NCBI RefSeq assembly: GCF_001625015.1
Contig: NZ_LVWJ02000019.1
Coordinates: 248,001 to 312,000, forward strand
DNA from: Lewinella sp. 4G2
Lineage (GTDB): Bacteria > Bacteroidota > Bacteroidia > Chitinophagales > Saprospiraceae
Direction of reading: 5' to 3'
Length of the DNA stretch: 64,000 nucleotides
Shown here: one piece after another, positions 4,209 through 60,563 of the stretch
Position numbering within the stretch: the first letter of the stretch is position 1
How the letters are laid out: the number at the start of each line of letters is the position of its first letter
Program-made: the position numbers and the translations under genes
The notes under the pieces: generated by a model
Databases searched by the model: none
What the model saw: the letters and a program-made list of their open reading frames with translations, nothing else
What the model was told of the DNA's origin: nothing

Positions 4209-5699
4209 CTACCGAAAAACCCGCGAATCATACGTCCCAATCCCCTGCTCCTTCAACCACCCCTGGTGCACCTTCAACCGCTCCACGAATGGTGCGTACT
4301 GCCGCTTCATTTGGTAACTCCAACCCACCTCCGCGAGGGCGGGCAAACGGGGGAAGACGAGGTAATCAATATCCTCCAACGAGCGGACGGTCTCACTCCA
4401 GAGAGGCGCTTCGATACCGAGGATATCCTTTTCCGTTAAGCCGTCCACCAGCGTACCGGGGTCCCAGTTGTAGGCATCGTCCACTTCGATGTAGGCGGCC
4501 CAGTGGAGGCCGATCCGGCTGAGGGAATCGTACTGCATATCGAGGTAAGTGCGCTTGGCGAGACTGAACAATACTTTGTTCCCCGCTTCCTTCGCTTTGA
4601 GGGCGTACTCGGTATGGTTCCAGAGTTGCACGACGGAGCCTTCGGCCAATCCGGCTACGGCTACCTCGTCCCAACCAATGGATTTTTTCCCGTGCTTCAG
4701 TACGATATCCTGCGCGCGGCGAATCAGCTTTACGTAATCGTCGTGCGGCGTTACGCTACTCTCGTCGCCGCCAATGTGAAAGTACGGGCCGGGCGTGATG
4801 GCACTGATCTCCCGGACCACGTCGTCGATGAATTCGTAGGTCACTTCTTTATTGGCATCCAGCGTGGAGAAACCCACCTTTGTGCCGAAGTAGGGGTCCC
4901 GCGCTTTACCGTCGCCGTTCAGTTCGGCGTAGGCGTTGAGGGCGGCATTGGTGTGGCCGGGCATGTCAATCTCCGGCACGACGGTGATACCGCGGGCGGC
5001 GGCGTAGTTCACGATCTCCGTGTAGTCCTCCTGAGTGTAGTAACCACCGGGCGTACCATCCACCTCAAACCGGCCACCGATCTCGGCGAGGCCGGGCCAG
5101 GATTTGATTTCAATCCGCCACCCCTGGTCGTCCGATAAGTGGAGGTGCAGGTGGTTAATCTTGTAGGGAGCGATCCGGTCAATCACCTGCTTCACTGTAT
5201 CCACGCCGAAAAAGTGGCGGGCCACGTCCAGCATGAAGCCCCGGTAAGCGTAGCGGGGTTGGTCCGTAATCGTCCCAGCGGGGAGGAAGATCCCCCGTTC
5301 GGTATTCGGGCTGAACTCAACGACTTGCACCAGCGTGATGGCCCCGTTCAGCAGCCCCGCGGCGGCTTTGGCCGTGATGGTAATTCCTTCCGCGGAGATG
5401 TCCAGCAGGTAGGCTTCGTTTGGCAGCGTCAGGCTGGGGTCGAGGCTGGTGGCCAGCGGCAGCATCCCCAGATCACGGCTCCTCAGGTAATCCATCGCAC
5501 CCGCGTCAGCGCCCGAATTACCTGCCGCTGCGTCGCCGTCGGTATCCACCCATAGGTAACCGTCGCGGCTGCTCATCTCGAAGGGCAGGGGTATGATCGG
5601 CAGGTCCGCCAACGGTGCCATGGCCGGGGCGGGCGGGATGGCATCGCCCCCACAGGAGAACAACAAAAAGGCGAGGCAACAGAGGGAAAGCAGGCGCAT
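4209..5699 (-). CDS. beta-N-acetylhexosaminidase, GH20, lipoprotein
   Basis: The protein has 496 residues from the ATG at 5699, chosen over an upstream ATG because it starts directly at the signal MRLLSLCCLAFLLFSCGG. The lipobox cysteine predicts a membrane-anchored enzyme. A GH20b-like alpha/beta domain (about 35-145) precedes the catalytic TIM barrel (about 150-450). Barrel motifs include YRGFMLDVARHFF, HLHLSDDQGWRIEIK, VPEIDMPGH and HIGGDES, the last holding the Asp-Glu catalytic pair of substrate-assisted hexosaminidases. It should remove terminal N-acetylhexosamine from chitin, peptidoglycan fragments or glycans. It is divergent from a VanX-like dipeptidase, a pairing that would fit wall-fragment processing. 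A 17-bp dispersed word lies in the N-terminal linker (5497-5513). Confidence 0.92.
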   Translation of the reverse strand: MRLLSLCCLAFLLFSCGGDAIPPAPAMAPLADLPIIPLPFEMSSRDGYLWVDTDGDAAAGNSGADAGAMDYLRSRDLGMLPLATSLDPSLTLPNEAYLLDISAEGITITAKAAAGLLNGAITLVQVVEFSPNTERGIFLPAGTITDQPRYAYRGFMLDVARHFFGVDTVKQVIDRIAPYKINHLHLHLSDDQGWRIEIKSWPGLAEIGGRFEVDGTPGGYYTQEDYTEIVNYAAARGITVVPEIDMPGHTNAALNAYAELNGDGKARDPYFGTKVGFSTLDANKEVTYEFIDDVVREISAITPGPYFHIGGDESSVTPHDDYVKLIRRAQDIVLKHGKKSIGWDEVAVAGLAEGSVVQLWNHTEYALKAKEAGNKVLFSLAKRTYLDMQYDSLSRIGLHWAAYIEVDDAYNWDPGTLVDGLTEKDILGIEAPLWSETVRSLEDIDYLVFPRLPALAEVGWSYQMKRQYAPFVERLKVHQGWLKEQGIGTYDSRVFR

Positions 5700-5743
5700 G
5701 GGTCGAGATTTGAAGGGCAAGATAAGGTACCTTCGCGGCTACC

Positions 5744-6430
5744 ATGATGAAGTTTTTGCCCCTGCTTTTTGTCCTCGCCGCCTGCACCAATGGCGAGCCC
5801 ACTCCCCCACCGGTCCTGCAAGCCGGGTTCCCCATCGAGGTACCGCCGCCACCACCGCCACCCGCGCCAGTCTACGATTACGATACGACGCAGTGGCTGG
5901 AAATGACGGACCTCGAGCCCACCATCCGCCTCGATCTCCGCTACGCCACGGCCAATAATTTCATGAAGACCAAGATCTACGATTGCGCCCGTTGCTTCTA
6001 CCGGCCCAAAGTTGCCAGGGCGCTGGCGCAGGTGCACAGGAAGTTGGGGGAACAAGGACTGGGCCTAAAAATGTACGACTGCTACCGGCCAGGACCGTAC
6101 CAACAACGGCTCTGGGACGTCCTCCCCGACGCCCGCTACGTCGCCAACCCCAAACGCGGTAGCCTCCACAGCCGCGGCGCCGCCGCCGACCTAACGGTAG
6201 TGGACCTCACCACCGGCGAAGAACTCGACATGGGTACCGGCTACGATTTCTTCGGCGTGAAAGCCTACACCACCACGACCAACCTACCGGCCAACGTACT
6301 CGCCAATCGGAAACTTTTCCAGGAAGCCATGCGCGCCGAAGGTTTCGGAACGATTCGGACGGAATGGTGGCACTTTAACTTTCTCGGCCCGCGGTATGAG
6401 TTATCGGATTGGGTTTGGGGGTGTGAGTGA
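5744..6430 (+). CDS. D-alanyl-D-alanine dipeptidase, VanX/DdpX-like lipoprotein (peptidase family M15D)
   Basis: The protein has 228 residues. FLPLLFVLAACTNG is a lipoprotein signal, followed by a proline-rich linker (about 36-42) and the M15D zinc peptidase domain. Zinc-site motifs are present: SLHSRGAAADLTV matches SxHxxGxAxD and EWWHF holds the catalytic Glu and last zinc His. The family cleaves D-Ala-D-Ala. With an export signal it is more likely to serve wall recycling or scavenging than vancomycin resistance, and no vanHA-like genes are nearby. It starts 45 bp from the divergent hexosaminidase start. A second Met directly after the first could also be used. Confidence 0.9.
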   Translation: MMKFLPLLFVLAACTNGEPTPPPVLQAGFPIEVPPPPPPPAPVYDYDTTQWLEMTDLEPTIRLDLRYATANNFMKTKIYDCARCFYRPKVARALAQVHRKLGEQGLGLKMYDCYRPGPYQQRLWDVLPDARYVANPKRGSLHSRGAAADLTVVDLTTGEELDMGTGYDFFGVKAYTTTTNLPANVLANRKLFQEAMRAEGFGTIRTEWWHFNFLGPRYELSDWVWGCE

Positions 6431-6517
6431 ATTGGTATTTTGGTGCTTTAGCTTCGCTGCTACTTCGTGGTGGTATTTTGGTGCTTTGGCTTGCGGGAGA
6501 CTACGCCAGATTTACCA

Positions 6518-8530
6518 TCACTGTCCGCGTTCCTTTACAATCTCCGGACGGATCCGTTGAGCCGCAGCGAACCGCTCCTGGGCCTCCGCCTCGCGGCCGG
6601 CGTTGAAGAGGGCCATCCCGTAGTTCCATTGAGCATCCGCATCGTTGGGGCGGACGGCCGCGGCGCGCTCAAAGAAGCCTACAGCCTCCTCCGTCTTGCC
6701 CGACACCCCAGAGGTGACGCCGAGTAAGCGCAAGGTTTCGTAATCCATCGGCCGCAGTTGTTCGGCTTCGCGGAGGTAGCGGTAGGCGCCTTCGATGTCG
6801 CCACGCTGCTCCCCGGCGGTTCGGCCACCGGCGCGCAGGGCAAGTATGAGATTGTCCTCGGCGGGTTGGTAGCTTGGGTCGAGCTCGAGTACCTTTTTGT
6901 AGGTGGTGATGGCGGCATCGTAGTCCTCCAGCAACAATTCGGCGTTACCGCGCAGCAGGTAGGCATTCCGGTAGGTGGGGTGGATTTCGATGGCTCGGTT
7001 CAGGTCGGTGATGGAGGTCGTCAGGAGTTCCTTTTGTCCGGGCTTCGCGGCGTCTGTCAGGCTTTGGTAGTAGTCCACCCGGGCCCCGCCGGCGGCGTTC
7101 AGTAGCTTGGCGGAGTTGGGTTGCTTTTTCACGTCGGTGGTAAAGAGGGTGTAGTTATCCTTCCAGTCCGGATTACGCAGTAGCGTCAGGACCGAGAAGA
7201 CGGCCACCACGGCGACGCCGGCCCACGCCAACTTACCACCGTACTTCCGGGCTAGCAACTGTAGTCCGTAGCCCACCGCAAAGGCCCAGCCCAAGCTCGG
7301 GAAGAAGAGAAAACGTTCCGAAAGCAGCGTCCCGACGGAGAAAGGAATATTACTCGCCACGCTGATTCCGGAGAGGTATAGCAGGATCCCAAAAGCTAAC
7401 GGCCGGTGGGTTTTCCACTTCAGGAGGGCAAAGGCCGCTAGCCCGAGGTGAACCAGTAAACCAATCCACGGGCCGATGTTGCCCCAGGTCTGCAGGGGGA
7501 TGGAAACCGGGTAGTAATCGTGCACCAGGTTGACGGGCAGGAAAATCAGTTTCAGGTAGAGTAAAAGGGTGTAGCAACCGGTGGCGACCCTTTCGGCCAA
7601 GGGGATTTCCCGCCAGATGCCGTTCCACCACTCCACGAAGGGATTGTTCATGAGTTCGAGGATGGGGGCTCCCGAAGCGTCCGGGAGGATAGCGCTGCGC
7701 ACGGCCAAGTACCCAAAGGCAGCGACGGCGGCGGGAGCAACGTATTTTAGTCCGGACCAATTCACGCCGTTTTTCGCCGGTCCACCGTCCCTTTTTACCG
7801 GTGGAAAGAGAAGTACTGCAGCCGGCAGCACGGCCAGGTAGGTGAAGGCGGTTTCTTTGCTCAGGCACCCCAGACCCATCGCCACGGCACCCGCGGCAGC
7901 GCCCAGCCAGCTTTTATCACGCGCCGCGCGCCAGACCAGCCAGGTGGCCAGCGCGGAAAAGAGCAACGCCGCAATCTCGTCGCGACCCTTAATGTTGGCC
8001 ACGGCCTCGGTGTGGATGGGGTGAGCTGCAAACAGCCCCACGATCAGCAGCGGCAACCACCAGGCGTAGCCCCTGTTTTTGAGTAGGCCGGTCACGAAAT
8101 ACAGCAGGAGCGCCAAGAGAGCTCCGTACCAGACGACGTTGAAGAAGTGGCCGATGAATGGGCCCGGACTCACCTGCTGCTCCACGGCAAACAGCGCCAG
8201 CGTCAACGGCCGGTAACGCCCGCCGGTGACGAGGTTGGCCTTGGACTCATCCTCGAAAAAGCCGTAAAAAGTATCGTAGGCAAAGATGTCGCCAATGCCC
8301 GCCGTCCCCTTTTGTACGAGGGCATTGTCGGTGATGACGATGGCGTCGTCCACCGTAAAATCGTGGCCCAAGGTGTTGCCGTAGAGCACGAAGGCGAAGA
8401 GGAACAAGGCCGCGGCCTGCACGACCGGGCGTTGGAACCAAGCGGGCGCCGCCGTAGACACAACGATGGGTGCTGACTCAATCTTGGAAAGAGGGGAAAC
8501 GGGAGCTTTCCGTTTTGACTTTTTCGCCAT
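6518..8530 (-). CDS. TMTC-like GT-C membrane protein with C-terminal TPR repeats
   Basis: The protein has 670 residues from the ATG at 8530 (MAKKSKRK). About ten hydrophobic segments (from residue 35 to about 430) carry GT-C hallmarks: an early acidic loop motif TVDDAIVITDN and the block AAHPIHTEAVANIKGRDEI, which closely resembles eukaryotic TMTC O-mannosyltransferases (GT105). The C-terminal third holds TPR repeats, such as LRGNAELLLEDYDAAITTYK and NYGMALFNAGREAEA. The likely role is lipid-linked sugar transfer to exported protein with TPRs for binding, but substrate and donor are unknown. An upstream ATG at 8548 adds six residues. A 17-bp dispersed word lies inside a membrane segment (7887-7903). 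Confidence 0.8.
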   Translation of the reverse strand: MAKKSKRKAPVSPLSKIESAPIVVSTAAPAWFQRPVVQAAALFLFAFVLYGNTLGHDFTVDDAIVITDNALVQKGTAGIGDIFAYDTFYGFFEDESKANLVTGGRYRPLTLALFAVEQQVSPGPFIGHFFNVVWYGALLALLLYFVTGLLKNRGYAWWLPLLIVGLFAAHPIHTEAVANIKGRDEIAALLFSALATWLVWRAARDKSWLGAAAGAVAMGLGCLSKETAFTYLAVLPAAVLLFPPVKRDGGPAKNGVNWSGLKYVAPAAVAAFGYLAVRSAILPDASGAPILELMNNPFVEWWNGIWREIPLAERVATGCYTLLLYLKLIFLPVNLVHDYYPVSIPLQTWGNIGPWIGLLVHLGLAAFALLKWKTHRPLAFGILLYLSGISVASNIPFSVGTLLSERFLFFPSLGWAFAVGYGLQLLARKYGGKLAWAGVAVVAVFSVLTLLRNPDWKDNYTLFTTDVKKQPNSAKLLNAAGGARVDYYQSLTDAAKPGQKELLTTSITDLNRAIEIHPTYRNAYLLRGNAELLLEDYDAAITTYKKVLELDPSYQPAEDNLILALRAGGRTAGEQRGDIEGAYRYLREAEQLRPMDYETLRLLGVTSGVSGKTEEAVGFFERAAAVRPNDADAQWNYGMALFNAGREAEAQERFAAAQRIRPEIVKERGQ

Positions 8531-8634
8531 GGAACGAAAGTAGCCCATAAATGGGATTCTGCAGATTGCGGGGCGGGCCCCGAACCAATCAGGACTTGGT
8601 TCCTTTGGTTAACTCACGCACTAAAGAAAAATCT

Positions 8635-9411
8635 ATGCCCCTGATCCTGGTAACGAACGATGATGGCATCACCGCCGGCGGTATCCGCGAACTCGTAGCG
8701 ATCGCCCGCACCTTCGGCGAAGTCATCGTTGTGGCGCCGGATAGCCCCCAATCCGCCCAGGGCCACGCCATCACGATCGAGACGCCCATTTTCGTAAGGG
8801 AATCGGACGTGTTCGGCCCCGACGTCAAAGCCTTTGAATGTAGCGGCACGCCGGTGGATTGCGTCAAGATCGCCAAGAGCGTTTTGCTGGAAGGGCGGAC
8901 GCCGGACCTCTGCGTATCGGGCATCAACCACGGGAGCAACGCGGCGGTGAATATCATCTATTCCGGTACGATGTCCGCCGCCATGGAGGCCAGTCTGGAA
9001 GGGGTACCGAGCATCGGCTTTAGCTACCTCGATTACGCCGCGGACGCCGACTTCAGCGTCTGCCGCCCCTACGTGGAAAAGATCATGCGCCAGGTGTTGG
9101 AAAACGGTATGGCCGGGGGCAGTCTCTACAACGTGAACATTCCCAAGCTGCCGGCCAGTGAGATCAAAGGCATCAAAGTATGCCGGCAGGCGGACGCCCG
9201 CTGGGTGGAAAAGTACCGGGCCGGCGAAGACCCCCGCGGCCGCCCCTATTACTGGCTGACGGGCGAATTCGTCAATAACGACCCGCACGAGGATGCTGAC
9301 GCTAATGCACTATTGGCCGGATACGTCAGCCTGGTCCCAAGCCACCACGATCTTACGGATTACCGGACGTTTGAACGCCTGAAGAAGAATTTTAGTCGCG
9401 TAGTCGGGTAG
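8635..9411 (+). CDS. surE: 5'/3'-nucleotidase SurE
   Basis: The protein has 258 residues from the ATG at 8635. The upstream in-frame extension has no similarity to the family. The N-terminus ILVTNDDGITAGGI is the SurE metal-binding signature (Asp-Asp), followed by VVAPDSPQSAQGHAIT, CSGTPVDCVKIA and the SGINHGSNAAVNIIYSGTMS block. SurE removes phosphate from nucleoside monophosphates and is linked to stationary-phase survival. The last codons (VVG, then stop) are contributed by the start of a GTAGTCGG repeat array, so the C-terminus has been shaped by that repeat. Confidence 0.95.
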   Translation: MPLILVTNDDGITAGGIRELVAIARTFGEVIVVAPDSPQSAQGHAITIETPIFVRESDVFGPDVKAFECSGTPVDCVKIAKSVLLEGRTPDLCVSGINHGSNAAVNIIYSGTMSAAMEASLEGVPSIGFSYLDYAADADFSVCRPYVEKIMRQVLENGMAGGSLYNVNIPKLPASEIKGIKVCRQADARWVEKYRAGEDPRGRPYYWLTGEFVNNDPHEDADANALLAGYVSLVPSHHDLTDYRTFERLKKNFSRVVG

Positions 9412-9463
9412 TCGGGTAGTCGGGTAGTACGTTACTACCCGACTACGCTACTACCCGACTACA
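9399..9463. repeat. GTAGTCGG direct and inverted repeat array
   Basis: Copies of GTAGTCGG run from the last codons of surE and are followed by inverted CCGACTAC copies, giving a long hairpin. Related arrays lie at 9878-9925 and 49984-50065. It may act as a terminator, but it looks mainly like an expanding simple repeat. Confidence 0.8.
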
Positions 9464-9501
9464 ATACTAACAAAGTCGTGTAAAAACGTATATTCACAGC
9501 T

Positions 9502-9870
9502 ATGAAGAAGCGTATCTGCCCGGAATGCGGCGAAGAATACACCGGCCGTTCGGACAAGAAATTCTGTTCCAGCCCCTGCCGCGCCGGTCATCACAACCGT
9601 AAGAACGCGGAGGATAATTCCTTTCAGCGGAGCATCAACAATATCCTGAAGCACAACCGTAACGTCCTGGCCGAGCTTAACCCGGACGGAAAGGCCAACG
9701 TGCGGAAGGATCGGCTGATCGACCGGGGCTTCAAGTTCCGCTACTTCACCAATCAGTATCGGACGAAGAACGATACGCTGTACCACTTCTGCTACGATTA
9801 CGGCTACCGCGTGGAGAAGGCGGATAGCGACTGGGTGTTTCTGATTAAGCGGCAGGAGTACGTGGAGTGA
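9502..9870 (+). CDS. zinc-ribbon protein of unknown function
   Basis: The protein has 122 residues. The first 30 carry a four-cysteine zinc ribbon, CPECGEEYTGRSDKKFCSSPC. The remainder is a soluble, basic, helical segment (SFQRSINNILKHNRNVL) followed by a short beta-rich tail with many aromatic residues (YHFCYDYGYRVEKADSDW). Proteins of this build are common in Bacteroidota and carry no assigned function. It is flanked on both sides by GTAGTCGG arrays, which makes it a free-standing unit. The ATG at 9502 follows an AT-rich leader without a purine-rich ribosome site, as is usual in the phylum. Confidence 0.75.
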   Translation: MKKRICPECGEEYTGRSDKKFCSSPCRAGHHNRKNAEDNSFQRSINNILKHNRNVLAELNPDGKANVRKDRLIDRGFKFRYFTNQYRTKNDTLYHFCYDYGYRVEKADSDWVFLIKRQEYVE

Positions 9871-9877
9871 TTTAGTT

Positions 9878-9925
9878 GGGTAGTCGGGTAGTCGGGTAGT
9901 CGGGTAGTCGGGTAGTCGGGTAGTC
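9878..9925. repeat. GTAGTCGG direct repeat array
   Basis: About five to six head-to-tail copies of GTAGTCGG follow the zinc-ribbon gene. Unlike the arrays at 9.4 kb and 50 kb, no inverted arm follows. Confidence 0.8.
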
Positions 9926-10028
9926 CGCAATATTATTCAGCCTTTCAGGTTTTTCAACTAACTACTCTTTTAGCAGTCTTTCGTCTAAAGTCTTTCTTCT
10001 AGCCTCTTTCCTCTCCTCAAAGCAAGTA

Positions 10029-10331: not shown

Positions 10332-10352
10332 ACACAGTCCTGGCCGCGGGAC

Positions 10353-10360: not shown

Positions 10361-10365
10361 GCGCC

Positions 10366-11943: not shown

Positions 11944-12827
11944 GTATCTGCATCCCTACTTATCAGTACGACGTTACGAAACTCGTTCTTCGTTTGCAGG
12001 AGCAGATGGACGAAGTAGATTTTCCTACCGAACTCCTGGTTTATGATGATGCGAGCCCGCAGGTGCCGGGTTGGTGGGCCAGTAAACAAAAGCTGGAGCG
12101 GCGGGGGACCGTACTCAAACGCCTGGAACACAACCTCGGCCGGGGGAAGATCCGTAACCAATTGGTCCGCGACGCGCGCTTCCCTTTCGTGCTATTGTTG
12201 GACGCCGACGCGGCCGTACCGAACGACTTCCTCGCCACCTACGGGCGCCACCTCAACCTCCACCAACCGATCCTCCCCCTCCTACTGATTGGCGGGCGAA
12301 CCTACGCCGAAGATCCACCCACCGACCGCAGTCTCCACCTCCACTGGTGGTACGGACGGAAACGGGAGAGTACGGACCGGCCGTACCGGGAGAATCCTTT
12401 TCACGGGTTCCAATCCAACAACTTTGTCGCCTCCCGCCAGCTGTTGCTGGACCGCCCCTTCCCGGAAGACGCCATCGGCTACGGCCACGAGGATACGCTG
12501 TGGGGTCAACAGCTGGAGGGGAAGGGCATCACGCTGAAGCGCATCGATAACCCCGTCGTCCACCTGGGTTTAGAACCGGCGCCGACCTTTCTCCGGAAGC
12601 AGCGGGAGGCCATCCTGAATTTAGCCCGCCTCCGGTCCCAACACCCGCACCTGCGTACGCGCCTAACGGATCTGTACGAGAAGGCTCCCCTCATGGGAAA
12701 GCTGGTAAAACTACTGCCAGAAAAGATCCTGATACAATACCTGATGGAAGTGAAAAAGCCGGACCTGCGGGGCCTCGATGCGCTAAAGCTCCGGTGGTAC
12801 GCGGAGGAAATGGGGAAGCGTAATTAG
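11937..12827 (+). CDS. GT2 family glycosyltransferase
   Basis: The protein has 296 residues from the ATG at 11937, inside the last codons of the upstream gene. GT-A features are clear: VSICIPTYQYD at the N-terminus, ELLVYDDAS (nucleotide-binding Asp), NLGRGKIRNQLV, and FVLLLDADAAVP with the DxD-type metal motif (about residue 90). GYGHEDTLWGQQL, like the ED motif of acceptor-side catalysis, comes later. There is no membrane segment apart from weak hydrophobic stretches, so it probably acts at the cytoplasmic face. Donor and acceptor are unknown. The overlap with the zincin-like gene suggests a joint role. Confidence 0.85.
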   Translation: MVSICIPTYQYDVTKLVLRLQEQMDEVDFPTELLVYDDASPQVPGWWASKQKLERRGTVLKRLEHNLGRGKIRNQLVRDARFPFVLLLDADAAVPNDFLATYGRHLNLHQPILPLLLIGGRTYAEDPPTDRSLHLHWWYGRKRESTDRPYRENPFHGFQSNNFVASRQLLLDRPFPEDAIGYGHEDTLWGQQLEGKGITLKRIDNPVVHLGLEPAPTFLRKQREAILNLARLRSQHPHLRTRLTDLYEKAPLMGKLVKLLPEKILIQYLMEVKKPDLRGLDALKLRWYAEEMGKRN

Positions 12828-15446: not shown

Positions 15447-15589
15447 ATTGCTAATCTTCTTTAATCTGCCACTTAACGCCAAGCTATTGGATAGGTTGAG
15501 ATAAGAACGGCCCAACATCCTGAATGCGAAGGAACACCGACTGCAGACTATAGACTACAGACTGTAGACTACACCTTCCCCCAACGCAG

Positions 15590-20742: not shown

Positions 20743-20824
20743 TCCGGACCCGCCAGGTATCCAAATTTTTTCTAGCTCCGTTTGCCCATTTTATCGCACC
20801 TGCGACAGCGCCCAAGTCAACGTC

Positions 20825-21424: not shown

Positions 21425-21479
21425 TTAGAAGATAGATTTTAGACTTTAGAGCGGTGGCTGTCTAAAATCTATCTTCTAA
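21425..21479. terminator. 20-bp perfect stem-loop between lutC and lon
   Basis: TTAGAAGATAGATTTTAGAC (21425-21444) pairs perfectly with 21460-21479 around a 15-base loop. It lies after lutC and before lon and probably ends the lut transcript. Relatives of the arm sequence occur near 59860-59885, so it is also a dispersed repeat. Confidence 0.6.
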
Positions 21480-21606
21480 AATCCAAAGTCTGAAAAGGGG
21501 CGCTGACGCGGGTGCGATGAGAAAGGCAAGAAATTTCCTGGCACGCTTCTTGCAAACCAACCTTTCCCGCAGCGTGAGCTTTAATAGTATAGACCCCAGG
21601 ACAAAC

Positions 21607-39027: not shown

Positions 39028-39368
39028 AGGGCAAAGCTTCACATGATCGATAAACAAGACGTAACCAAAGCGCCGCGGTAACGGCCACCGGGCCAAATTT
39101 AGTGAAAATTCGCTGGGCTCAGTGTCGCACGATCATTGTTAGAGAATTTTCGGGCTTTACTTACTTTCCAAGCTTTCACCCGCATTTTCATTGGGCCCGC
39201 AATGATACGCACATTCACCTTTAAACACATTTTTGTCTTCACTCAACCAGCTAGTGACTATGGGGCGCTGCCGCGGGTGCAATGGAATGGGAACGGGGCC
39301 GCTCCGGCGCAAAGCGCAGCCTTTACCAAGATGAACCATTAGAATGATGGGTGACGCTACCACTACAG

Positions 39369-41251: not shown

Positions 41252-42860
41252 CGACCGTGGTGACCTGGGCGCCGTCTACCCTCACGTGATATATTCCGGG
41301 GGCCACGTTGGCTTCGATCCGGTTCCCCCGCCCACGGGCGACCAATCGGCCGTCCGCTGCCCATAATCCCCACTTGGCACCTGCGTCAGCGCCCCTTAAA
41401 ACGATGGGGTGGTTGATGGGTGCTGGATTCGGGAAGGCGGTGATGTTAGCTGCATCCGACGAGCTACCGAAGGTGACCGAACGCACCTCGCTGTAGTGCT
41501 CGGTGCCATCCAGATCCCGCTGGCGCAGCCGGTAATAGTGGAGGCCGGGGCCGGGGTAATCGTGGTCGAAGGAATAGGTATCTCCGGCGGCGGGCACCCA
41601 GGCCACGTCGGCAAACTGCCCGTCCGCCAGCGCGTGTTCCACCGTGAAGCCGGCGTTATCGCGTTGCTCGCTGACTTCCCAATTCAGATAAGCCGCTTTG
41701 GTGTCAGCCGACACTTCGAAAGCGCTGTAAGTGACCGGCAGTGACCGGTCGATACGGACAACGTGCAGCCCGGTGTACTGGTCGCTGGCCAGGATATTTC
41801 CGGAGGGGAGGTAAGGGTAACAGCCCCAAACGCCGCGGCTGTAGGTATTTGCGTTGGGCGTGGTATCGAAAAAACCTCTGCGGCTGGCGTTGTTGCGGTC
41901 GGTGATGTCCCAGACCTGCACGCCCTCGCCGTAGTAGCTGAGAACGACCAGGCTATCGCCAAGTACGTAGGGGTTGTGAGCGAGGCTCCGCACGCTATTC
42001 GGTGCCAGACTGGCCGAGCGAAACAGGCTCGTCACTTCCATATCGGTAGGGTCCGCGACGCTGACGACCTTGACGCCAGTGTTGCTCGTCTCGTCGCACA
42101 TCACGACGTGCTGTGCGTCGTCCGTACGCCAAACGCTGTGGTTGTAGCCCTGCTCTGCGTAATTGGAAAGGATGCCGAGTTCGCGAGGATTCGTGGGCGT
42201 GGAAACGTCGTAAACGTACATGCCCCGGCCCTCGGAATTGGCGTACAAGGTGTCATTGATGGCGTAAGCGTCGTGGACGTAGCCGCCCGTCAGGTTGACC
42301 GAGGCCATCTCCACGGGGGCGATAGGGTTGGAGATGTCGAGCACGATGTACCCCTGGCGCTGTACCTGCGTGCCCACTGCGTAGAGGCGCACGGGCGAGC
42401 TCGTAGAATCGATGAAGATGTTGTGGCAACGGGTGAAGAATTCCGTACTCTGGTAGGGCACCGAGACGGAGTTGGGCAGGCCCGACAAATCGATGATCTG
42501 CAAGCCCTCATTTCCCTCCGTTACGCAGTAGGCGTAATCGCCGTGCACCTTGATGTCCCGCCACGTGCTCTGAGAATTCAGGACGACATTGAGCCGGCTG
42601 ATCTCGGTGATGTTCGCCGGGTCCGTGACGTCAAGGACGTGAATGAAGAAACGGGAGGCAATCAGGGCGTATTCCCGGCCGTCCCGCGCGTAGCCCCACA
42701 CGTCGCTGTAACGGTTTTGGTTTGGCTGCCCGGCCAACGTCGGGTCGTCCCAGCTTCCCAGGGAGAACATATTATCACTTTCCTGGGCGCTGGCGCGGGT
42801 GCCGGGGAGGAGGGCAAGCAAAAGGGACAGGCAGGTAAGGACCGGGATAAATCGTTTCAC
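41238..42860 (-). CDS. LVIVD-repeat choice-of-anchor-B protein with C-terminal sorting-like domain
   Basis: The protein has 540 residues if the GTG at 42860 is used, which places the signal VLTCLSLLLALLPGTRASA at the N-terminus. No ATG is available without a long unlike extension. Six or more LVIVD blades (FIHVLDVTDPANITEISRL, GLQIIDLSGLP, GYIVLDISNPIAPVEMASV, GMYVYDVSTPTNPRELGIL) form a predicted surface propeller. A fibronectin-like region follows, then an end (ITAFPNPAPINHPIVL to VTTVVISR) like a short T9SS sorting domain. Two 17-bp words lie in this gene, in the signal region (42786-42802) and near the end (41377-41393). Confidence 0.82.
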   Translation of the reverse strand: MKRFIPVLTCLSLLLALLPGTRASAQESDNMFSLGSWDDPTLAGQPNQNRYSDVWGYARDGREYALIASRFFIHVLDVTDPANITEISRLNVVLNSQSTWRDIKVHGDYAYCVTEGNEGLQIIDLSGLPNSVSVPYQSTEFFTRCHNIFIDSTSSPVRLYAVGTQVQRQGYIVLDISNPIAPVEMASVNLTGGYVHDAYAINDTLYANSEGRGMYVYDVSTPTNPRELGILSNYAEQGYNHSVWRTDDAQHVVMCDETSNTGVKVVSVADPTDMEVTSLFRSASLAPNSVRSLAHNPYVLGDSLVVLSYYGEGVQVWDITDRNNASRRGFFDTTPNANTYSRGVWGCYPYLPSGNILASDQYTGLHVVRIDRSLPVTYSAFEVSADTKAAYLNWEVSEQRDNAGFTVEHALADGQFADVAWVPAAGDTYSFDHDYPGPGLHYYRLRQRDLDGTEHYSEVRSVTFGSSSDAANITAFPNPAPINHPIVLRGADAGAKWGLWAADGRLVARGRGNRIEANVAPGIYHVRVDGAQVTTVVISR

Positions 42861-46419: not shown

Positions 46420-46485
46420 GGTGTCCCAATAGATGCTTGCAGGATTGGGTTCGACCCGGCCGCTCGGAGACCCTCCTACGTCGGG

Positions 46486-46761
46486 CGGTCATACACACGG
46501 CCGGACGCTTGCAGGACCTCCTGCGTCGGACGCTACAAGGACCTACTCATCATCATTACCACTGCTCCTCGTAGCGTCGAATCTATTGTAGCGTAGTGGA
46601 AATAGAATCGTCCTGCGAGCGTGCGGTCATACACACGGCCGGACGCTTGCAGGACCTCCTGCGTCGGACGCTACAAGGACCTACACATCATTTCTGCCAC
46701 AGCTCCTCGTAGCGTCGATGCTATTGTAGCGTAGTGGAAATAGAATCGTCCTGCGAGCGTG
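46486..46761. repeat. 138-bp tandem duplication, two full copies
   Basis: Unit 1 (46486-46623) and unit 2 (46624-46761) are nearly identical, opening with CGGTCATACACACGGCCGGA. A degenerate partial third unit lies at about 46437-46485. Each holds a GCAGGACCTCCTGC hairpin and two TAGCGT words. It lies between convergent genes; I find no ORF in it. Confidence 0.85.
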
Positions 46762-46769
46762 CGGCCCCC

Positions 46770-49983: not shown

Positions 49984-50065
49984 TAGTCGGGTAGTCGGGT
50001 AGTACGGTAGTACGGTAGTCGGGTAGTAGCGTAGTACTACCCGACTACCCGACTACCGTACTACG
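49984..50065. repeat. GTAGTCGG direct and inverted array inside the sulfur operon
   Basis: Direct GTAGTCGG and GTAGTACG units (49984-50030) are followed by their reverse complements (50031-50065). This gives a hairpin-forming array between cysH and the FNR gene, of the same family as 9399-9463. Confidence 0.8.
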
Positions 50066-50754: not shown

Positions 50755-51633
50755 TCAGTTGGATGGGGTGGCTGGGTCTTCGGTAGGTGCAAATTGCGCT
50801 CCTCCCGATTCTGGCTGTAACGAGTTGGGCGCTGACGCGGGTGCAAAGGTAATGGGTTCGGAACTGGCTTCCTGCGCGGCGGCGGCCACCAAACATCCGC
50901 CGGGCGGGCAGCGGTGGACGGGCCTTTCGCCGGAGGCGGACGCCAGCAAACTACTCGTGACGCTGTTGAGTTCGCGCACTTTGGTTTGGAAGTCGCCCGT
51001 CAGCCGGTCCCGGAAAAGTTTCAGGTTATCTAAGAGGGTAGTCGTTTCAAATTCGGGTAATTCCGCCTCCAGAAACTGGCGGAATCGTTTTGCAAAAGTG
51101 GGGCTCTGGCCGTTCGTGCTGATCGCCACCTTGAGGGGGCCGCGGGTTACGATACTGCCGAGGTAGAAATCACAGAGACTGGGGGTATCGGCGATATTGG
51201 TCAGTCTACGGGCGGCCTTGGCGGCCTTCCAGACGGAGAGGTTGATATCCTTAAAATTGGTGGCGGCTACTACCAGGTCGGCGATCTCTACGTCACTTTC
51301 CTGGAATTTACGGGCGTAGTAGATGACCGTACCTCCGGCTGGCGTTTTCCATTCTCCGTTGGGGACTTCGCCCGTAAACCGGGCGGCTTCCAACGTGTGC
51401 CCACCGAAGCCTGCTTCATCCTCACTTTGCACCTGCGACAGCGCCCGCTGATGGTGGTCGTCGAGTAGGGCCTTGAGCTCTTCACCCATCCACGGGGCGA
51501 CGATGACGACGCGGGCGTTGGGGCTGGATTTGAGGATGAAACTTAACTTTTCCTCACCTACCTCTCCGGCGCCGACAACTAGTAGTTGGAGGCGGTCCAG
51601 GCGGAAGAAGGCGGGGTAGAGGGGGTTGGTCAA
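50755..51633 (-). CDS. precorrin-2 dehydrogenase/ferrochelatase for siroheme, with insertion and extended tail
   Basis: The protein has 292 residues, against about 200 for the usual Met8p/CysG-N type. The NAD-binding core QLLVVGAGEVGEEKL and VVAATNFKDINLSVW, then DFYLGSIVTRGPLKVAISTNGQSP, are typical. Two additions stand out: residues about 61-106, between strands where relatives have only a few residues, and a low-complexity tail (about 235-292) with HRCPPGGC. Both hold a copy of the 17-bp dispersed word (51429-51445 and 50828-50844). It oxidises precorrin-2 and inserts iron, after CobA, to give siroheme for the sulfite reductase. Confidence 0.88.
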   Translation of the reverse strand: MTNPLYPAFFRLDRLQLLVVGAGEVGEEKLSFILKSSPNARVVIVAPWMGEELKALLDDHHQRALSQVQSEDEAGFGGHTLEAARFTGEVPNGEWKTPAGGTVIYYARKFQESDVEIADLVVAATNFKDINLSVWKAAKAARRLTNIADTPSLCDFYLGSIVTRGPLKVAISTNGQSPTFAKRFRQFLEAELPEFETTTLLDNLKLFRDRLTGDFQTKVRELNSVTSSLLASASGERPVHRCPPGGCLVAAAAQEASSEPITFAPASAPNSLQPESGGAQFAPTEDPATPSN

Positions 51634-52654: not shown

Positions 52655-52655
52655 A

Positions 52656-54776: not shown

Positions 54777-55038
54777 ACCCGAAAGTACCCGTTTGCGTGC
54801 CTTTCGGTCGAATTGAAGTATGAAAAGAACAACCTATGAACGTTTAATATTTTAGGCCAACTATCTGTAAAGCAGCATTTTACAAAACTACATTTCCGGC
54901 ATTCGTCCAAACCTTAACATATATTAAAAATCGCCATGCGTTGTTTTCTTTCATTTTAAACTAAGTATTTGATCATACCAATGGTTTTCACCTCCATTTA
55001 CGGTCGTTAACAACTGATGGCAGAATGGGTTAGAACTG

Positions 55039-56091: not shown

Positions 56092-56226
56092 CTAAAGACA
56101 CATGTTTGGCCATCCGTTCTGATCTAGAAAAGCAACATTACCCGCCCATATATTCAATTGTTAGGATCGACACAGGAATAGGCTTTTATGCTGGGCCATC
56201 CTTGCGAGCGTTTGCGAGTGCACTGC

Positions 56227-56628
56227 TTAACCTTGAGCTGATAGCCTACCATCCGGTTCGGGGTACCACTTCGTAAGGTTGAGGACCGCCCACGCGAAAA
56301 GGATCAGTTCTAAAATTAAGCCAACCAGGAATTGTGGCGAGTTACCGTCAAGAACGATACTGATCGTCCGCCCAACGGCTAGACCGCCCATGAAGAGGGC
56401 GTTTACGAACGTGGCGTTTCGCCAGTGGTCCGGTTTCCAGACGGCGTATACCCAGTAGCCGCCGATGGCCCAGTACAGCCCCATCACCGCGCGGAAGATG
56501 TTTTTCAGATCAATATCCTCTACGGAAAAGCCGAATACTTCCGGCAAGATTCTGGCGGGGGCGGCGCCGTATACCAGACTTACCGACAGTACGATCGCCG
56601 CAGAAATAATGAGTTGGGCATTTTTCAT
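56227..56628 (-). CDS. DUF4345 membrane protein
   Basis: The protein has 133 residues from the ATG at 56628; an in-frame ATG at 56712 adds unlike residues read through a 17-bp dispersed word. Four hydrophobic helices are present (about 3-22, 38-58, 67-88 and 98-121). The ARILPEVFGFSVED, FRAVMGLYWAIGGYWVYA and GGLAVGRTISIVLDG segments identify DUF4345. Function is unknown. Confidence 0.82.
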   Translation of the reverse strand: MKNAQLIISAAIVLSVSLVYGAAPARILPEVFGFSVEDIDLKNIFRAVMGLYWAIGGYWVYAVWKPDHWRNATFVNALFMGGLAVGRTISIVLDGNSPQFLVGLILELILFAWAVLNLTKWYPEPDGRLSAQG

Positions 56629-56760
56629 GATTATTCCTTCTTCCGGTAAAGCTACCATACCCATCTTCCCCGGCACCCGCGGCAGCGCCAAAAAACCATT
56701 ACCCGTACTCAACCATATATTGGCTTCACCCGATTAGTAGTTGAACACCCCCGAAACACT

Positions 56761-57534
56761 ATGTCCCAACCCGCCGTCTATATCCGTAACCTCGTGAAGA
56801 GTTACGGGAAAAAAGAGGTAATTACCGGCCTCGACCTTGAACTGGATAACGGCCAGATTATTGGCTACATCGGCCCGAATGGCGCCGGAAAATCCACGAC
56901 CATGCGGATTTTAGCCGGCCTGGATAACGACTTTACCGGCGACGTGCAGGTACTGGGAATCGACGTCAAAAAGGACCCCGTCGGCGTTAAACGCCGCATC
57001 GGCTACCTGCCCGAAGCGGGGGATATGTACGACGTGCTGCGGCCCGATGAATTCTACGATCTGGTCGGTAGTTTGCACGGGCTGGAGCAGGAAACCATCC
57101 GCCGACGCGCCGCCAAACTGGAGGATTTTCTGCAACTTAAATACACCGATAAACAGCGCATCGATACCTTCAGCAAGGGGATGCGCCAGAAAGTATTGCT
57201 GACGAGTACGCTGCTTCACGACCCGGATCTGATCTTCATGGACGAGCCGCTGAACGGCCTCGACGCCAACTCCGTCATCCGGGTAAAGGACCTGCTTGCG
57301 AGCCTTGCGGCGGACGGCAAAACCATCTTCTACAGTAGCCACATTATGGACGTCGTGGAACGGATCAGTAACCGGATCGTGCTGCTCAACGACGGCAAGA
57401 TCGTAGCCAACGGCACCTTTGCGGAGATCAATGAGCAAGTCCGGGGCGGCAATCTGGAGAACCTCTTTGCCAGCCTCACCGGCGGTACGGCCTCCGGCGA
57501 AGTCGCTACCTTCAAACTCGGCGACGATGAATAA
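56761..57534 (+). CDS. ABC transporter ATP-binding protein
   Basis: The protein has 257 residues. All ABC motifs are present: GYIGPNGAGKSTTMR (Walker A), a Q-loop equivalent at IGYLPEAGDMY, TFSKGMRQKVLL (signature) and DLIFMDEPLNGLD (Walker B), and SSHIMD (H-loop). It is an ABC-2 export type ATPase of the CcmA/Nat family. Its last codons overlap the start of the permease gene by 8 bp, so the two form one transporter. The cargo is unknown. Confidence 0.92.
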   Translation: MSQPAVYIRNLVKSYGKKEVITGLDLELDNGQIIGYIGPNGAGKSTTMRILAGLDNDFTGDVQVLGIDVKKDPVGVKRRIGYLPEAGDMYDVLRPDEFYDLVGSLHGLEQETIRRRAAKLEDFLQLKYTDKQRIDTFSKGMRQKVLLTSTLLHDPDLIFMDEPLNGLDANSVIRVKDLLASLAADGKTIFYSSHIMDVVERISNRIVLLNDGKIVANGTFAEINEQVRGGNLENLFASLTGGTASGEVATFKLGDDE

Positions 57535-59209
57535 ATTATTCGTTTGGCTCATCGGCCTCTTCGGCCCCCTCTGGGAGCGGGCGGGGGCGGACCCACGGGC
57601 CGTAAAACTGATCGTCGCCACCAAACTGAAGGTATCCGACCGGGTACCGAAGGGCATGAATTACGGGGCGCGCAAGAAGAAGCCGAGCAAGTGGATGGAG
57701 TTCTTCAGCTACTTCATGATGGCCTTGATCGGCCTTGTGGTGGTCGTGCTCCTCTTTAAGTTTGACCACCAGCCTACCGCTCTCGGCATCGGGTACTCCG
57801 TGATCGGTATTTACCTGTGCATGATGCTCGTCCTGGAACTCAGCGACAGCATATTTGATACGCGGGACGTGAGCGTGCTGCTCAGCCGGCCCATCAGCGA
57901 CTTCACTTTTGCTTTATCGCGCGGCTTATTCGTGTTCGCCTACGCGGCCAAGATGATGCTTTCGATGGCCCTGCCGCCCTTCATCTGTCTGGCCTTTATT
58001 GCGCCCCTGCAGTTGCCGATTTTCTTTTTGGCGACTACGGCGATCACGGTGATCAGTACGGTTGGCATCCTCAGTTTTTACCAATTTTTGCTGCGAAAAC
58101 TGAGCACGGCCACGCTGAAAAAGGTGCTTTCCACGACGCAAATGTTGTTCAGCGGCTTCTTCATTATGATCTACCTCGGGCCACAACTTGCCAGTGGCAT
58201 TGACGATTCTTACTACGGCATCCGATTGGTCGGGGAGACCGCCGGGTTCATCTTCCCGAGCTTCTGGATCGGGGCCTGGCACGACCTCGGCGCAGGGGCG
58301 ACGACTCTCAGTTACGTACAAGCGGGCTTGGGTTTAGCAACGGTCATCCTTGCCTCGGTGGTGTACCGCAGCCAGGCGCAGGGTTACGCTGCGGGCTTGC
58401 TTAAGCTGGGCAGCTCGGGGTCGGCGGTACAGGAAACCGAACCCGACGGGGATACCCCCGTAAATACGCAGACGGATACGGGCCCACGGAAACCCTCCCT
58501 GGGCGACCGGTTGGCGGTCCTTTTTACCCGTCCCGGTATTGAGCGGGCGAGTTACAAGTTTCACTGGGCCATGATGCTACGGGCGCGGTCGTTCAAGAAT
58601 AAGGTTTACCCTACGCTGCTTTTTGCGCCATTCTTCGTAGTGTTCTTCATGATCCGGGACGGCTTTAGTGGGGGGGACGGTATCTTCGGTAGCAGCCTAC
58701 TTTTCGGGCTGTACTACATGATGATGACGGTCATCACGCCCCTCGGCCAAGCGCGCATTGCCGAGAAACCTTCCGCCGCCTGGGTGTGGCAGGTGCATCC
58801 GTTGCCGAACCGGGGGCCGGTGGCTTACGGGCAGTACATGGCCTCGTTGAGCCAGTTTTACCTGCCCACTTTTTTGATTACCCTTCCGCTCTTTTTGTAC
58901 CAGGGTGGCCTCGGTTTTTTCCCCGACGTTCTGCTGGCGATGGCGCTTTCCATCGTGGCTGGTGCCCTTTTCCAAATGCTGGAGCGCACCCTCCCCTTTT
59001 CCCGCGCGATTGACAATAATCGCATGAGTAATATTGGTGCGGTGATTGCAGTGTTTTTGTTTGCGGGGTTGGCTGGGTTTGGTCATTATTTGTTACGCCA
59101 ACTTCCTTACGGTATTTGGTTTGGCCTTGTTGGTGCCGTGATCGCCGGATTTATCAGTTTGTATTGGTTGCGGCGGATGAAGGGTTCTTTTGAGGAGGTG
59201 GTTGAGTGA
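57527..59209 (+). CDS. ABC-2-like export permease
   Basis: The protein has 560 residues from the ATG at 57527, inside the end of the ATPase gene. Twelve or so hydrophobic segments are spread in two halves separated by a polar loop (about 295-340, rich in Thr and Asp). This is the size and layout of large Bacteroidota ABC exporter permeases. With the ATPase it should form a homo- or pseudo-dimeric exporter in the inner membrane; the substrate cannot be read from sequence. Confidence 0.85.
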   Translation: MNKLFVWLIGLFGPLWERAGADPRAVKLIVATKLKVSDRVPKGMNYGARKKKPSKWMEFFSYFMMALIGLVVVVLLFKFDHQPTALGIGYSVIGIYLCMMLVLELSDSIFDTRDVSVLLSRPISDFTFALSRGLFVFAYAAKMMLSMALPPFICLAFIAPLQLPIFFLATTAITVISTVGILSFYQFLLRKLSTATLKKVLSTTQMLFSGFFIMIYLGPQLASGIDDSYYGIRLVGETAGFIFPSFWIGAWHDLGAGATTLSYVQAGLGLATVILASVVYRSQAQGYAAGLLKLGSSGSAVQETEPDGDTPVNTQTDTGPRKPSLGDRLAVLFTRPGIERASYKFHWAMMLRARSFKNKVYPTLLFAPFFVVFFMIRDGFSGGDGIFGSSLLFGLYYMMMTVITPLGQARIAEKPSAAWVWQVHPLPNRGPVAYGQYMASLSQFYLPTFLITLPLFLYQGGLGFFPDVLLAMALSIVAGALFQMLERTLPFSRAIDNNRMSNIGAVIAVFLFAGLAGFGHYLLRQLPYGIWFGLVGAVIAGFISLYWLRRMKGSFEEVVE

Positions 59210-59329
59210 TTTTTTGCGCTGTCGCAGGTGCAGGGTGTAGGGCAAGTAATATGGGATTTGACGGATTGTGCTGGATTACTCTAATAATTATGATGGATGC
59301 CTCGGTGTCCATAACTGTGGCTTTCTGTG

Positions 59330-59840
59330 TCTTCCCGGCTCCCGACCTCCAGGTCGGGCTGCTATTTATTCGATAAAAACTATTGATATAATTTTTTCCG
59401 TTTCCTTTCTGACACTTCTTTTATGCCATTTCCTTTCTATCACTTCTTTTGTGATCACCACGCAGTAGCAGCGAAGCTAAAAGAAGCAAAAGTCTCGTCC
59501 TATAACCATGGCTTAACGCGTGTACTCGGCTCCCGATCTCCAGGTCGGGCTTTTTATTTTTGGGCAATTCTAATAATATGATTTTGCTGTTTTCTTTCTG
59601 ACACTTCTTTTGTGACCAAAAGAAGCAAAAGTCTTGTCCTTTGCAGGTGGCTTAACGCAAAATTTCTTCGGATTAGCTAAACGCTGCAAACTCGCTTAAC
59701 GACTTATTTTCAAGCACCGATTTGCGATTGCATCAAATTTGGTTCCATACAGAATTTGTATCAACTCGAACAGTGCAGCGTTCTTAACGCTAATCCGAAG
59801 AAATTTTACTACCACCTGCAAGGGACGGATAAAACCTACG
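59330..59840. repeat. composite palindromic repeat array, copy 2 (inverted relative to copy 1)
   Basis: Read in reverse, this is the same order as 3711-4207: a palindromic block (59638-59830), then two units with AAAGAAG-rich segments and CCCGACCT/AGGTCGGG hairpins (59341-59358 and 59532-59549). The second hairpin is followed by TTTTTATTTT and is a likely terminator for the ABC operon. It sits between convergent genes, as does copy 1. Together with a 17-bp word at 59215-59231 it fills the 680-bp gap. Confidence 0.85.
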
Positions 59841-59888
59841 CATCAAAGTATCCCGTCCAAAATCTAAAATCTATCTTCTAAAGTCCTT

Positions 59889-60563
59889 CTACCCTCCCCC
59901 CAAAGTCTTAATCTCCTTCGCACTCAGTACCGAACCTTGCACCTGCGTCCGCGCCGCGTTGATCATAGCTTTGCCTACCTGGGCGCTGGTGGATACGCTT
60001 TTGAATTTATTGAATAAACCGTAAAGGGGTTTGGTGACGGTGAGCAAGGCATTGACCCACTTACTTTTGGATTTGATGCCTTCACCGGGAATGACCATAC
60101 CGATGCGGAAGGCGTAGGCTGCCGCGAAGCCACGGTTGAGGATGTAGTTCTCAGTTTTTCCCTTGACGCGGGCCCACATGAGTCGGCCGGATTCAGTGCC
60201 ATCCGTGCCTGCACCCGAGACGTAGATGAATACCGAGCGGTAGTTGGCGGCGTAGATGGCGTCGGCCAGGCTCTGGGTGACGGTGTAGGTGAGGCGGGTG
60301 TAGTCGGCTTCGTTCATGCCCGCTGAAGAGACGCCCATGCAGTGAAAACAGGCACCGGGCTGGAAGGCAGTGAGTTGGTCGATGGCCGTGGAGAAATCGG
60401 TAAAATCCTCATGGATCAGTTCCCGCAGCTTGGGGTGGGTAATATCACCGGGCCGGCGGGCGATGGAGAGCACCTGGTCGACCGCCTTGTTCTCCAGGCA
60501 TTCGAGCAGAACACCTTTACCGATCATACCGGAGGCACCAGTGAGGACGACGTTGAGGGGCAT
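59889..60563 (-). CDS. atypical SDR, NAD(P)-binding epimerase-like protein
   Basis: The protein has 224 residues. The N-terminal VVLTGASGMIGKGVLLECL is a cofactor-binding loop of the extended/atypical SDR type, followed by FHCMGVSSAGMNEADYTRLT, IYVSGAGTDGTESGRLMWARVKGKTE and a YAFRIGMVIPGEG strand. The YxxxK catalytic pair is replaced by a WARVKGK segment, as in NmrA/HTATIP2-like proteins, so it may act as a redox sensor or weak reductase. No partner gene is obvious. A near-match of the 17-bp word lies close to its 3' end (59939-59955). Confidence 0.8.
   Translation of the reverse strand: MPLNVVLTGASGMIGKGVLLECLENKAVDQVLSIARRPGDITHPKLRELIHEDFTDFSTAIDQLTAFQPGACFHCMGVSSAGMNEADYTRLTYTVTQSLADAIYAANYRSVFIYVSGAGTDGTESGRLMWARVKGKTENYILNRGFAAAYAFRIGMVIPGEGIKSKSKWVNALLTVTKPLYGLFNKFKSVSTSAQVGKAMINAARTQVQGSVLSAKEIKTLGGG

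What the first reader, a model, noticed from the sequence alone, without database searches (positions are those of the whole stretch)
5497..59955. A 17-bp dispersed word, GCACCYGCGNCAGCGCC, in both orientations within and between genes
Exact matches lie at 5497, 7887, 20796, 41377, 51429 and 56673 (plus) and 21499, 39264, 42786 and 50828 (minus). One-mismatch copies lie at 59215 and 59939, and a weaker one at 12647. With 15 fixed positions, even one chance hit in 64 kb is unlikely. Inside genes it is read in different frames (GADAGA, GAAAGA, APASAP, SQVQ), so selection or spread acts on DNA, not protein. The usual next base is C. It could be a mobile micro-repeat, a DNA-uptake-like word, or a protein-binding or methylation site.
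Basis: seen in the sequence. Interest (0 to 1): 0.75.

Follow-up and report, generated by a model that had tools for sequence, protein, structure and literature searches.

The report
Genus-wide self-DNA word with dialects
A marine bacterium carries about 900 exact copies of a 17-letter DNA word that looks and evolves like the password some bacteria use to recognise and take up DNA of their own kind; its relatives use their own dialects, and copies on the same strand keep about 3,000 letters apart, which suggests the word is read one strand at a time.

Summary
It is confined to one genus (Neolewinella/Lewinella) among 60 genomes. Congeners carry dialects (A to C at position 12; a form two bases longer), and one, G011, has an unrelated word instead (851 copies, at most 1 in each of 20 others). 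Alignments show sites arise in place, without insertion, and persist, so it is not a mobile repeat.

New regularity: same-orientation copies exclude one another over about 3 kb (24 pairs seen, 172 expected in the stretches counted); opposite-orientation copies do not (188 seen, 182 expected). G011's word obeys the same rule; E. coli Chi does not.

Best reading: a DNA-uptake-sequence-like self-recognition word, kept by biased recombination and read strand by strand. ComEC and DprA are present, but no convincing type IV pilus ATPase was found, so it is not a Neisseria- or Haemophilus-type system. Uptake itself is untested. The papers searched describe no such word in Bacteroidota.

The parts
5497..5513 (+). 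exact copy GCACCCGCGTCAGCGCC, antisense inside a GH20 glycosidase gene
   Evidence: Pfam; of 17 congeners aligned, 7 carry it with at most 2 mismatches and 10 have 7-11 mismatches
   Evidence: of 5 congeners aligned, G019 has it, G002, G005, G006 and G015 have 2-7 mismatches without gap
7887..7903 (+). exact copy GCACCCGCGGCAGCGCC, antisense inside a TPR-protein gene
   Evidence: present with 1-2 mismatches in 5 of 5 congeners aligned
12647..12663 (+). two-mismatch look-alike, possibly chance
20796..20812 (+). exact copy GCACCTGCGACAGCGCC, intergenic by the session's gene finder, after the LUD/LutB gene
21499..21515 (-). exact copy GCACCCGCGTCAGCGCC, just upstream of the Lon protease gene
39264..39280 (-). 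exact copy GCACCCGCGGCAGCGCC, intergenic between divergent genes
41377..41393 (+). exact copy GCACCTGCGTCAGCGCC, inside an LVIVD-repeat gene (antisense)
42786..42802 (-). exact copy GCACCCGCGCCAGCGCC, same LVIVD gene (sense, near its predicted start), opposite orientation to 41377
50828..50844 (-). exact copy GCACCCGCGTCAGCGCC, inside a siroheme-synthesis-like gene (sense)
51429..51445 (+). exact copy GCACCTGCGACAGCGCC, same gene (antisense)
56673..56689 (+). exact copy GCACCCGCGGCAGCGCC, between a DUF4345 gene and an ABC-transporter gene by the gene finder (inside the former if its longest TTG-start frame is taken)
59215..59231 (-). one-mismatch copy GCACCTGCGACAGCGCA, intergenic
59939..59955 (+). 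one-mismatch copy GCACCTGCGTCCGCGCC, inside an epimerase-family gene

Best explanation
The word is the genome-wide tag of a self-DNA recognition system that works like the DNA uptake sequences (DUS) of Neisseria and uptake signal sequences (USS) of Haemophilus. Inferred steps: the cell imports DNA from its surroundings; import or subsequent recombination is strongly favoured when the DNA carries the word; DNA from kin that carries the word therefore replaces word-less alleles; the word accumulates at tolerated positions and is kept near-exact; when the reader protein's specificity drifts, the words across the genome drift with it, giving species dialects. Shown here: copy number, genus restriction among the genomes searched, dialects, an unrelated word in one congener, origin in place without insertion, retention at orthologous sites, strand-specific exclusion, presence of ComEC and DprA. 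Not shown: DNA uptake, the reader protein, and any effect of the word on transformation.
For: 888 exact copies balanced between strands, control 0. Weaker partial consensus around the core (about CCCHTTnCHYn upstream, CAAAT downstream; 101 sites), comparable to the flanked core of USS (passages of PMC7811141). Steep fall-off: 147 exact, 45 one-mismatch, 20 two-mismatch in 841 kb, reversed sequence 0, 4, 17. 115 copies in genes and 77 between them, 85% of the DNA being coding. Dialects; the generalised pattern well above its control in 20 of 21 congeners, own included. A different word in G011, 433 + 418 copies, 0-1 in each of the other 20. 8 of 10 own sites alignable to G019 (N. antarctica) still carry the motif, at most one further mismatch allowed. 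Origin in place. Same-strand pairs under 3 kb: 5 seen/64.5 expected (own), 8/33.0 and 11/74.8 (other species); opposite-strand 68/65.3, 37/37.8, 83/79.0. Of four placement rules simulated only the strand-specific one gives the observed pair counts. ComEC in 21 of 21 and DprA in 20 of 21 genomes. [quoted passage not shown]
Against: No convincing type IV pilus/type II secretion ATPase: PF00437 gives partial hits (at most about 84 of 370 positions) in 20 of 21 genomes, 11 of them just over the curated cut-off, the own genome below it; other pilus families were not searched. ComEC and DprA are widespread (10 and 11 of 14 control genomes) and not specific to word-bearing genera. A 17.7 kb word-free stretch in the window holds housekeeping genes, not an island. 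H. influenzae uptake is reported to be independent of motif orientation (PMC1939737, passages), so strand-specific exclusion is not predicted by the standard model. Only 3 of 77 intergenic copies lie between convergent genes, unlike DUS terminator pairs. In G019 the exclusion is weaker (same-strand pairs 0 seen/4.1 expected under 1 kb, 4/8.1 at 1-3 kb). A hard 3 kb limit gives less regularity than observed. No transformation data for the genus in the papers searched.
Confidence: 0.6

Rival explanations
1. A Chi-like signal for chromosomal double-strand-break repair: an end-processing enzyme reads the word on one strand as it travels, so each orientation serves one direction and must be evenly spaced.
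For: Strand-independent channels and even same-strand spacing (mean 8.8 kb, CV 0.50) are what such selection would favour; overall density (about one per 4.4 kb) is close to that of Chi in the E. coli stretches counted (71 in 300 kb).
Against: About 15 fixed bases plus flanks is far longer than known Chi sites (5-8 bases, recalled). RecC (PF04257) is absent in 21 of 21 genomes; AddAB was not searched. Chi in 300 kb of E. coli K-12 is clustered and strand-biased, not exclusive: same-strand CV 1.42, 20 same-strand pairs under 1 kb against 9.9 expected. No consistent orientation bias along the own pieces.
Confidence: 0.12
2. A binding site for an abundant nucleoid-organising protein; orientation-specific loops or translocation make close same-direction copies useless.
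For: Long, specific, conserved site; regular spacing; no link to transcription direction (60 sense, 55 antisense).
Against: Dialect drift of hundreds of sites and an unrelated word in one congener are hard to reach by site-by-site selection (argument, not a test); no preference between convergent and divergent pairs (35 against 33 under 3 kb).
Confidence: 0.18
3. A dispersed mobile micro-repeat (REP- or MITE-like).
For: Many near-identical copies; some close inverted pairs (42, 55, 57 and 69 bp).
Against: Word-less relatives differ by base replacement in ungapped alignments. By eye the core has no hairpin kept across dialects (not folded). No transposase family was searched.
Confidence: 0.02
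4. A methylation or restriction-avoidance site, or a HIP1-like iterated word of unknown use.
For: High copy number, both strands.
Against: Length, flanking consensus, dialects and strand-specific exclusion have no counterpart known to me in methylation sites; HIP1 is a short palindrome (recalled).
Confidence: 0.05

Closest known systems
DNA uptake sequence (DUS) and its dialects, Neisseriaceae (Frye et al. 2013, PMC3630211: abstract and sections 6 and 11 read; Treangen et al. 2008, PMC2397512: passages)
   Same: Highly iterated non-palindromic word in both orientations; inside and between genes; species dialects including a change of length; conserved
   Different: Unrelated and longer word; lower density (888 exact in 5.2 Mb against about 1,900 to 5,900 in 2.2-2.4 Mb); exact copies outnumber one-mismatch copies, the reverse of the two Neisseria ratios given there (1:1.15, 1:1.45) though not of Kingella oralis (21% more with one mismatch); no convincing type IV pilus ATPase; not enriched at convergent gene ends; strand-specific exclusion not mentioned in what I read
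Uptake signal sequence (USS), Pasteurellaceae (passages of PMC1939737 and PMC7811141)
   Same: Core plus weaker flanks, balanced orientation, many copies inside genes
   Different: Different word; USS uptake is reported to be orientation-independent; USS spacing about 1 kb against 4.4 kb here
Chi recombination hotspot
   Same: Oriented, genome-wide, similar density
   Different: Short; clustered and strand-biased in the E. coli stretches examined
Self-DNA preference of Riemerella columbina (PMC7965970, section 16 read)
   Same: Same phylum, preferential uptake of own DNA
   Different: Only A-rich k-mers of 10 bp or less were listed there as candidates; no comparable word

Membership tests
DUS/USS-type uptake sequence | Over-represented, non-palindromic, dispersed word on both strands | tested here: met
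   443 + 445 copies, control 0 + 0
DUS/USS-type uptake sequence | Near-exact conservation; location in tolerated coding frames and intergenic DNA | tested here: met
   147 exact/45 one-mismatch in 841 kb; 77 of 192 intergenic
DUS/USS-type uptake sequence | Dialects among related species | tested here: met
DUS/USS-type uptake sequence | Arises in place without insertion and is retained at orthologous sites | tested here: met
   8 of 10 and 7 of 8 alignable sites; three window sites across congeners
DUS/USS-type uptake sequence | Type IV pilus-type uptake motor | tested here: not met
   PF00437 only: partial hits in 20 of 21 genomes, 11 just over the cut-off, own genome below it, none in G010
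DUS/USS-type uptake sequence | Inner-membrane channel and transformation mediator (ComEC, DprA) | tested here: met
   21 of 21 and 20 of 21; the DprA miss is a 55% complete genome; both are common elsewhere
DUS/USS-type uptake sequence | Enhances uptake or transformation | not testable with these tools
   needs an experiment
DUS/USS-type uptake sequence | Inverted pairs at transcription ends | tested here: not met
   3 of 77 intergenic copies between convergent genes; close inverted pairs exist but are few
DUS/USS-type uptake sequence | Depleted from islands and recent insertions | not tested
   one 17.7 kb word-free stretch looked at is housekeeping
Chi | RecBCD present; short word; strand bias | tested here: not met
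   RecC 0 of 21; no consistent strand bias; AddAB not searched
REP/MITE mobile repeat | Clean insertion relative to an empty orthologous site | tested here: not met
Methylation site | Modified base at the word | not testable with these tools
   no methylation data

The most novel reading that the evidence does not exclude
A new class of self-DNA code in Bacteroidota that does not use a type IV pilus and is read on single strands: each strand of the chromosome carries its own, independently spaced array of words, about one per recombination tract, and whole genomes can switch to a new word while keeping the same spacing rule.
Probability: 0.3. Interest if true: 0.9.

Novelty: new variant of a known kind. 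Interest (0 to 1): 0.78.

Why it matters
Sequence-coded self-recognition in DNA uptake is established in two proteobacterial families (Neisseriaceae, Pasteurellaceae). An independent case in another phylum, with a genus-wide set of dialects and one unrelated replacement word, would let one watch how such codes originate and change. The strand-specific exclusion of about 3 kb is a quantitative footprint of the mechanism and can be tested at once on the known DUS and USS genomes. It would also hint at how Bacteroidota without pili bring DNA in, and offer a practical handle for transforming these marine bacteria.

Tried and rejected
Mobile micro-repeat: rejected by ungapped orthologues. Protein-level explanation: rejected by several frames and dialect shifts. 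Chi: see rivals; an E. coli K-12 yardstick was counted (300 kb, 71 sites). Orientation alternation of neighbours (140 of 190) first looked like a pattern of its own; a circular-shift control reproduces it (mean 0.73 against 0.74), so it follows from two independent regular arrays. In the small samples of G019 (26 of 49) and G001 (12 of 19) alternation is not significant. Orientation-blind and directional-coverage rules gave the wrong numbers of convergent and divergent pairs in simulation; the strand rule with a hard 3 kb limit gives CV 0.63 and alternation 0.69, less than the observed 0.50 and 0.74.

An apparent all-plus contig (C14) is probably an artefact of the 100-place listing cap. The genome-contig scan also stopped at its limit and served only for names; it lists single chance-like matches in GC-rich organisms of other phyla too. 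Four other genera of the family (G021, G023, G033, G034; 80-126 kb each) showed no comparable word; G022 and G024 gave too little sequence. A Haemophilus yardstick could not be reached.

Rows dropped: the G019 count uses 333 of 373 kb (L098, L099 left out). In one search, G006 uses contigs C11, C12, C16, C19, C20 (87 of 100 listed places) and G002 uses C19, C20, C21, C23 (76 of the 100 places listed); all 100 listed G011 places were used. In G011 two same-strand pairs under 1 kb (C2:139179/139508 and 140508/140564) break the rule. Two of ten own-to-G019 alignments (C11:209897 and C19:171330) were gapped and ambiguous. The base tally of the longer form printed indexed the wrong column and was not used. 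Whether a site arose by stepwise point mutation or by recombination of a diverged allele cannot be told; Treangen et al. (PMC2397512, passages) argue for recombination in Neisseria.
Full report
OBSERVATION. The pattern GCACCYGCGNCAGCGCC occurs 11 times exactly in the window, twice with one mismatch and once with two; 100 shuffles average 0.16 such matches. In the whole genome (5,213,657 bases, 21 contigs) there are 443 forward and 445 reverse exact copies, and none of the pattern read backwards.

WHERE IT OCCURS. Of 60 genomes searched with the exact pattern (own included), 18 have a match, all in the window's genus (18 of 21); 0 of 39 others have one (16 genomes from 16 other genera of the family, 23 from the rest of the order). 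Counts in the 20 congeners run from 0 to 136. The species of the window was not identified.

DIALECTS. Unbiased k-mer counts explain the low numbers. G019 prefers GCACCCGCGACCGCGCC (40 of 62 sites of this spacing have C at position 12). G007 uses about GCWCCYGCGCNCCGGCGCC and G001 about TTWCCTGCGCNCCGCCGCC, two bases longer. A pattern covering these forms is found 153 to 1268 times in each of 20 of 21 genomes of the genus, against 1 to 165 for the reversed control; the largest control is G019's, 165 against 767. The twenty-first, G011, has 3 + 3 (control 3 + 2). It carries instead CTNNCAAAGTAGCA 433 + 418 times, reversed control 1 + 0, and the other 20 carry it 0 or 1 time each. That word too has a longer partial consensus (about TTTTGRCTnnCAAAGTAGCA, by eye) and lies both in and between genes.

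ANATOMY. In 101 sites the core is flanked by a weaker consensus: C-rich at -11 to -8, TT at -7/-6, C at -4, then C and AAAT after the core. In 841 kb of the own genome there are 147 exact, 45 one-mismatch and 20 two-mismatch copies, against 0, 4 and 17 in the reversed sequence. In genes, sense (60) and antisense (55) are about equal; four frames hold 26-29 copies each and the other two hold 6 and 0. Between convergent genes only 3 were found. There is no consistent orientation bias along the pieces examined.

ORIGIN. Ten of the 192 own sites could be aligned to the G019 stretches held; eight carry the motif at the same place (one further mismatch allowed), five of the eight with G019's C at position 12; two alignments were gapped and ambiguous. 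In the other direction seven of eight are shared; the eighth is ungapped and differs by substitutions. At about 75% identity, chance retention of 15 fixed bases would be about 1% (my arithmetic). Codon alignments for three window sites: at 6019 (M15 peptidase) G019 has the motif while G002, G005, G006 and G015 have the same codons with 2-7 mismatches and no gap; at 5497 (GH20) seven relatives have it with at most 2 mismatches and ten have 7-11, two of those flagged with an indel; at 7887 (TPR) all five relatives aligned have it although the proteins are only 54-68% identical. So the word arises by replacement of bases in place and is then held; an inserted mobile repeat is excluded at the sites examined.

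SPACING. Neighbouring copies alternate in orientation in 140 of 190 cases. Shifting the minus set along the plus set reproduces this (0.73 against 0.74), so each strand carries its own regular array. Same-strand spacing averages 8.8 kb, CV 0.50, and in this sample no same-strand pair is closer than 1 kb. Same-strand pairs under 3 kb number 5 where 64.5 are expected; opposite-strand pairs number 68 where 65.3 are expected, 35 convergent and 33 divergent. Stretches from other species give 8 of 33.0 and 37 of 37.8, and position lists of G011, G006 and G002 give 11 of 74.8 and 83 of 79.0. G011, with its unrelated word, follows the rule (7 of 27.8 against 31 of 28.1; 0 of 10.5 against 11 of 10.7), with two exceptions under 1 kb. 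G019 follows it only weakly beyond 1 kb (4 of 8.1 at 1-3 kb). Chi in 300 kb of E. coli K-12 does not follow it: same-strand CV 1.42 and an excess of close pairs. Of four placement rules simulated, only the one that forbids same-orientation neighbours gives the observed numbers of same, convergent and divergent pairs, though with less overall regularity than observed.

MECHANISM. Inference: a second copy on the same strand within about 3 kb brings no advantage, so it is not maintained, whereas a copy on the other strand does bring one. This fits a process that handles one strand or one direction at a time, such as import or integration of single strands in natural transformation. Treangen et al. 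[quoted passage not shown] ComEC is found in 21 of 21 genomes and DprA in 20 of 21. The type IV pilus/type II secretion ATPase family gives partial hits of at most about 84 of 370 positions, 11 of 21 genomes just over the cut-off, the own genome below it; I take these to be other ATPases, which was not tested. If so, the outer-membrane step must differ from Neisseria and Haemophilus. RecC is absent in 21 of 21.

LITERATURE. The library holds no paper with both Saprospiraceae and 'natural competence', Lewinella and 'natural transformation', or Neolewinella and 'transformation'. Searches joining uptake sequences with Bacteroidetes or Bacteroidota found no description of such a word in this phylum among the titles and abstracts listed (5 of 5; 20 of 130; none found). 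Most subscription papers are not in that library. Riemerella columbina prefers its own DNA, without an established word (PMC7965970, section 16 read).

VERDICT. The most likely reading is a DUS/USS-like self-recognition word in a new phylum, with dialects and a strand-specific exclusion rule; by word and apparent machinery it is not a member of either known family. Function is untested.

Noticed in passing
window 9393-9469, 9873-9925, 49984-50055: Tandem arrays of the 8-mer TAGTCGGG, in places with its reverse complement nearby as an inverted repeat; the 10-mers AGTCGGGTAG/CTACCCGACT are also over-represented in own C11 plus window and in G007.
   Followed up: partly
window 3671, 15539-15573, 21434-21470, 59863: Dispersed TAGA/ACTA-type short repeats (AGATTTTAGA, ACTACAGACT, ACTATAGACT), about 40-50 times over expectation in the own stretches; AGATTTTAGA is also enriched in another genus, G034.
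   Followed up: no
window 46485-46764: Two tandem copies of a 138-bp unit, 94% matching.
   Followed up: no
G019 stretches L081-L099: N. antarctica has further iterated words: CTACCGCCTA (58 copies) and the palindrome CGATAGCTATCG (26 when both strands are counted, so 13 places) in 373 kb.
   Followed up: no
G021 C1 (L252-L254): Many copies of GTACCCGTGTACC/GTACCCATGTACC-type words in a neighbouring genus, apparently tandem.
   Followed up: no
own C11:368976-381183 (L049, L050): Very long predicted genes (8.3 and 12.9 kb) in which an inverted pair of the word recurs at identical spacing (439 bp), presumably copied with the gene repeats.
   Followed up: no
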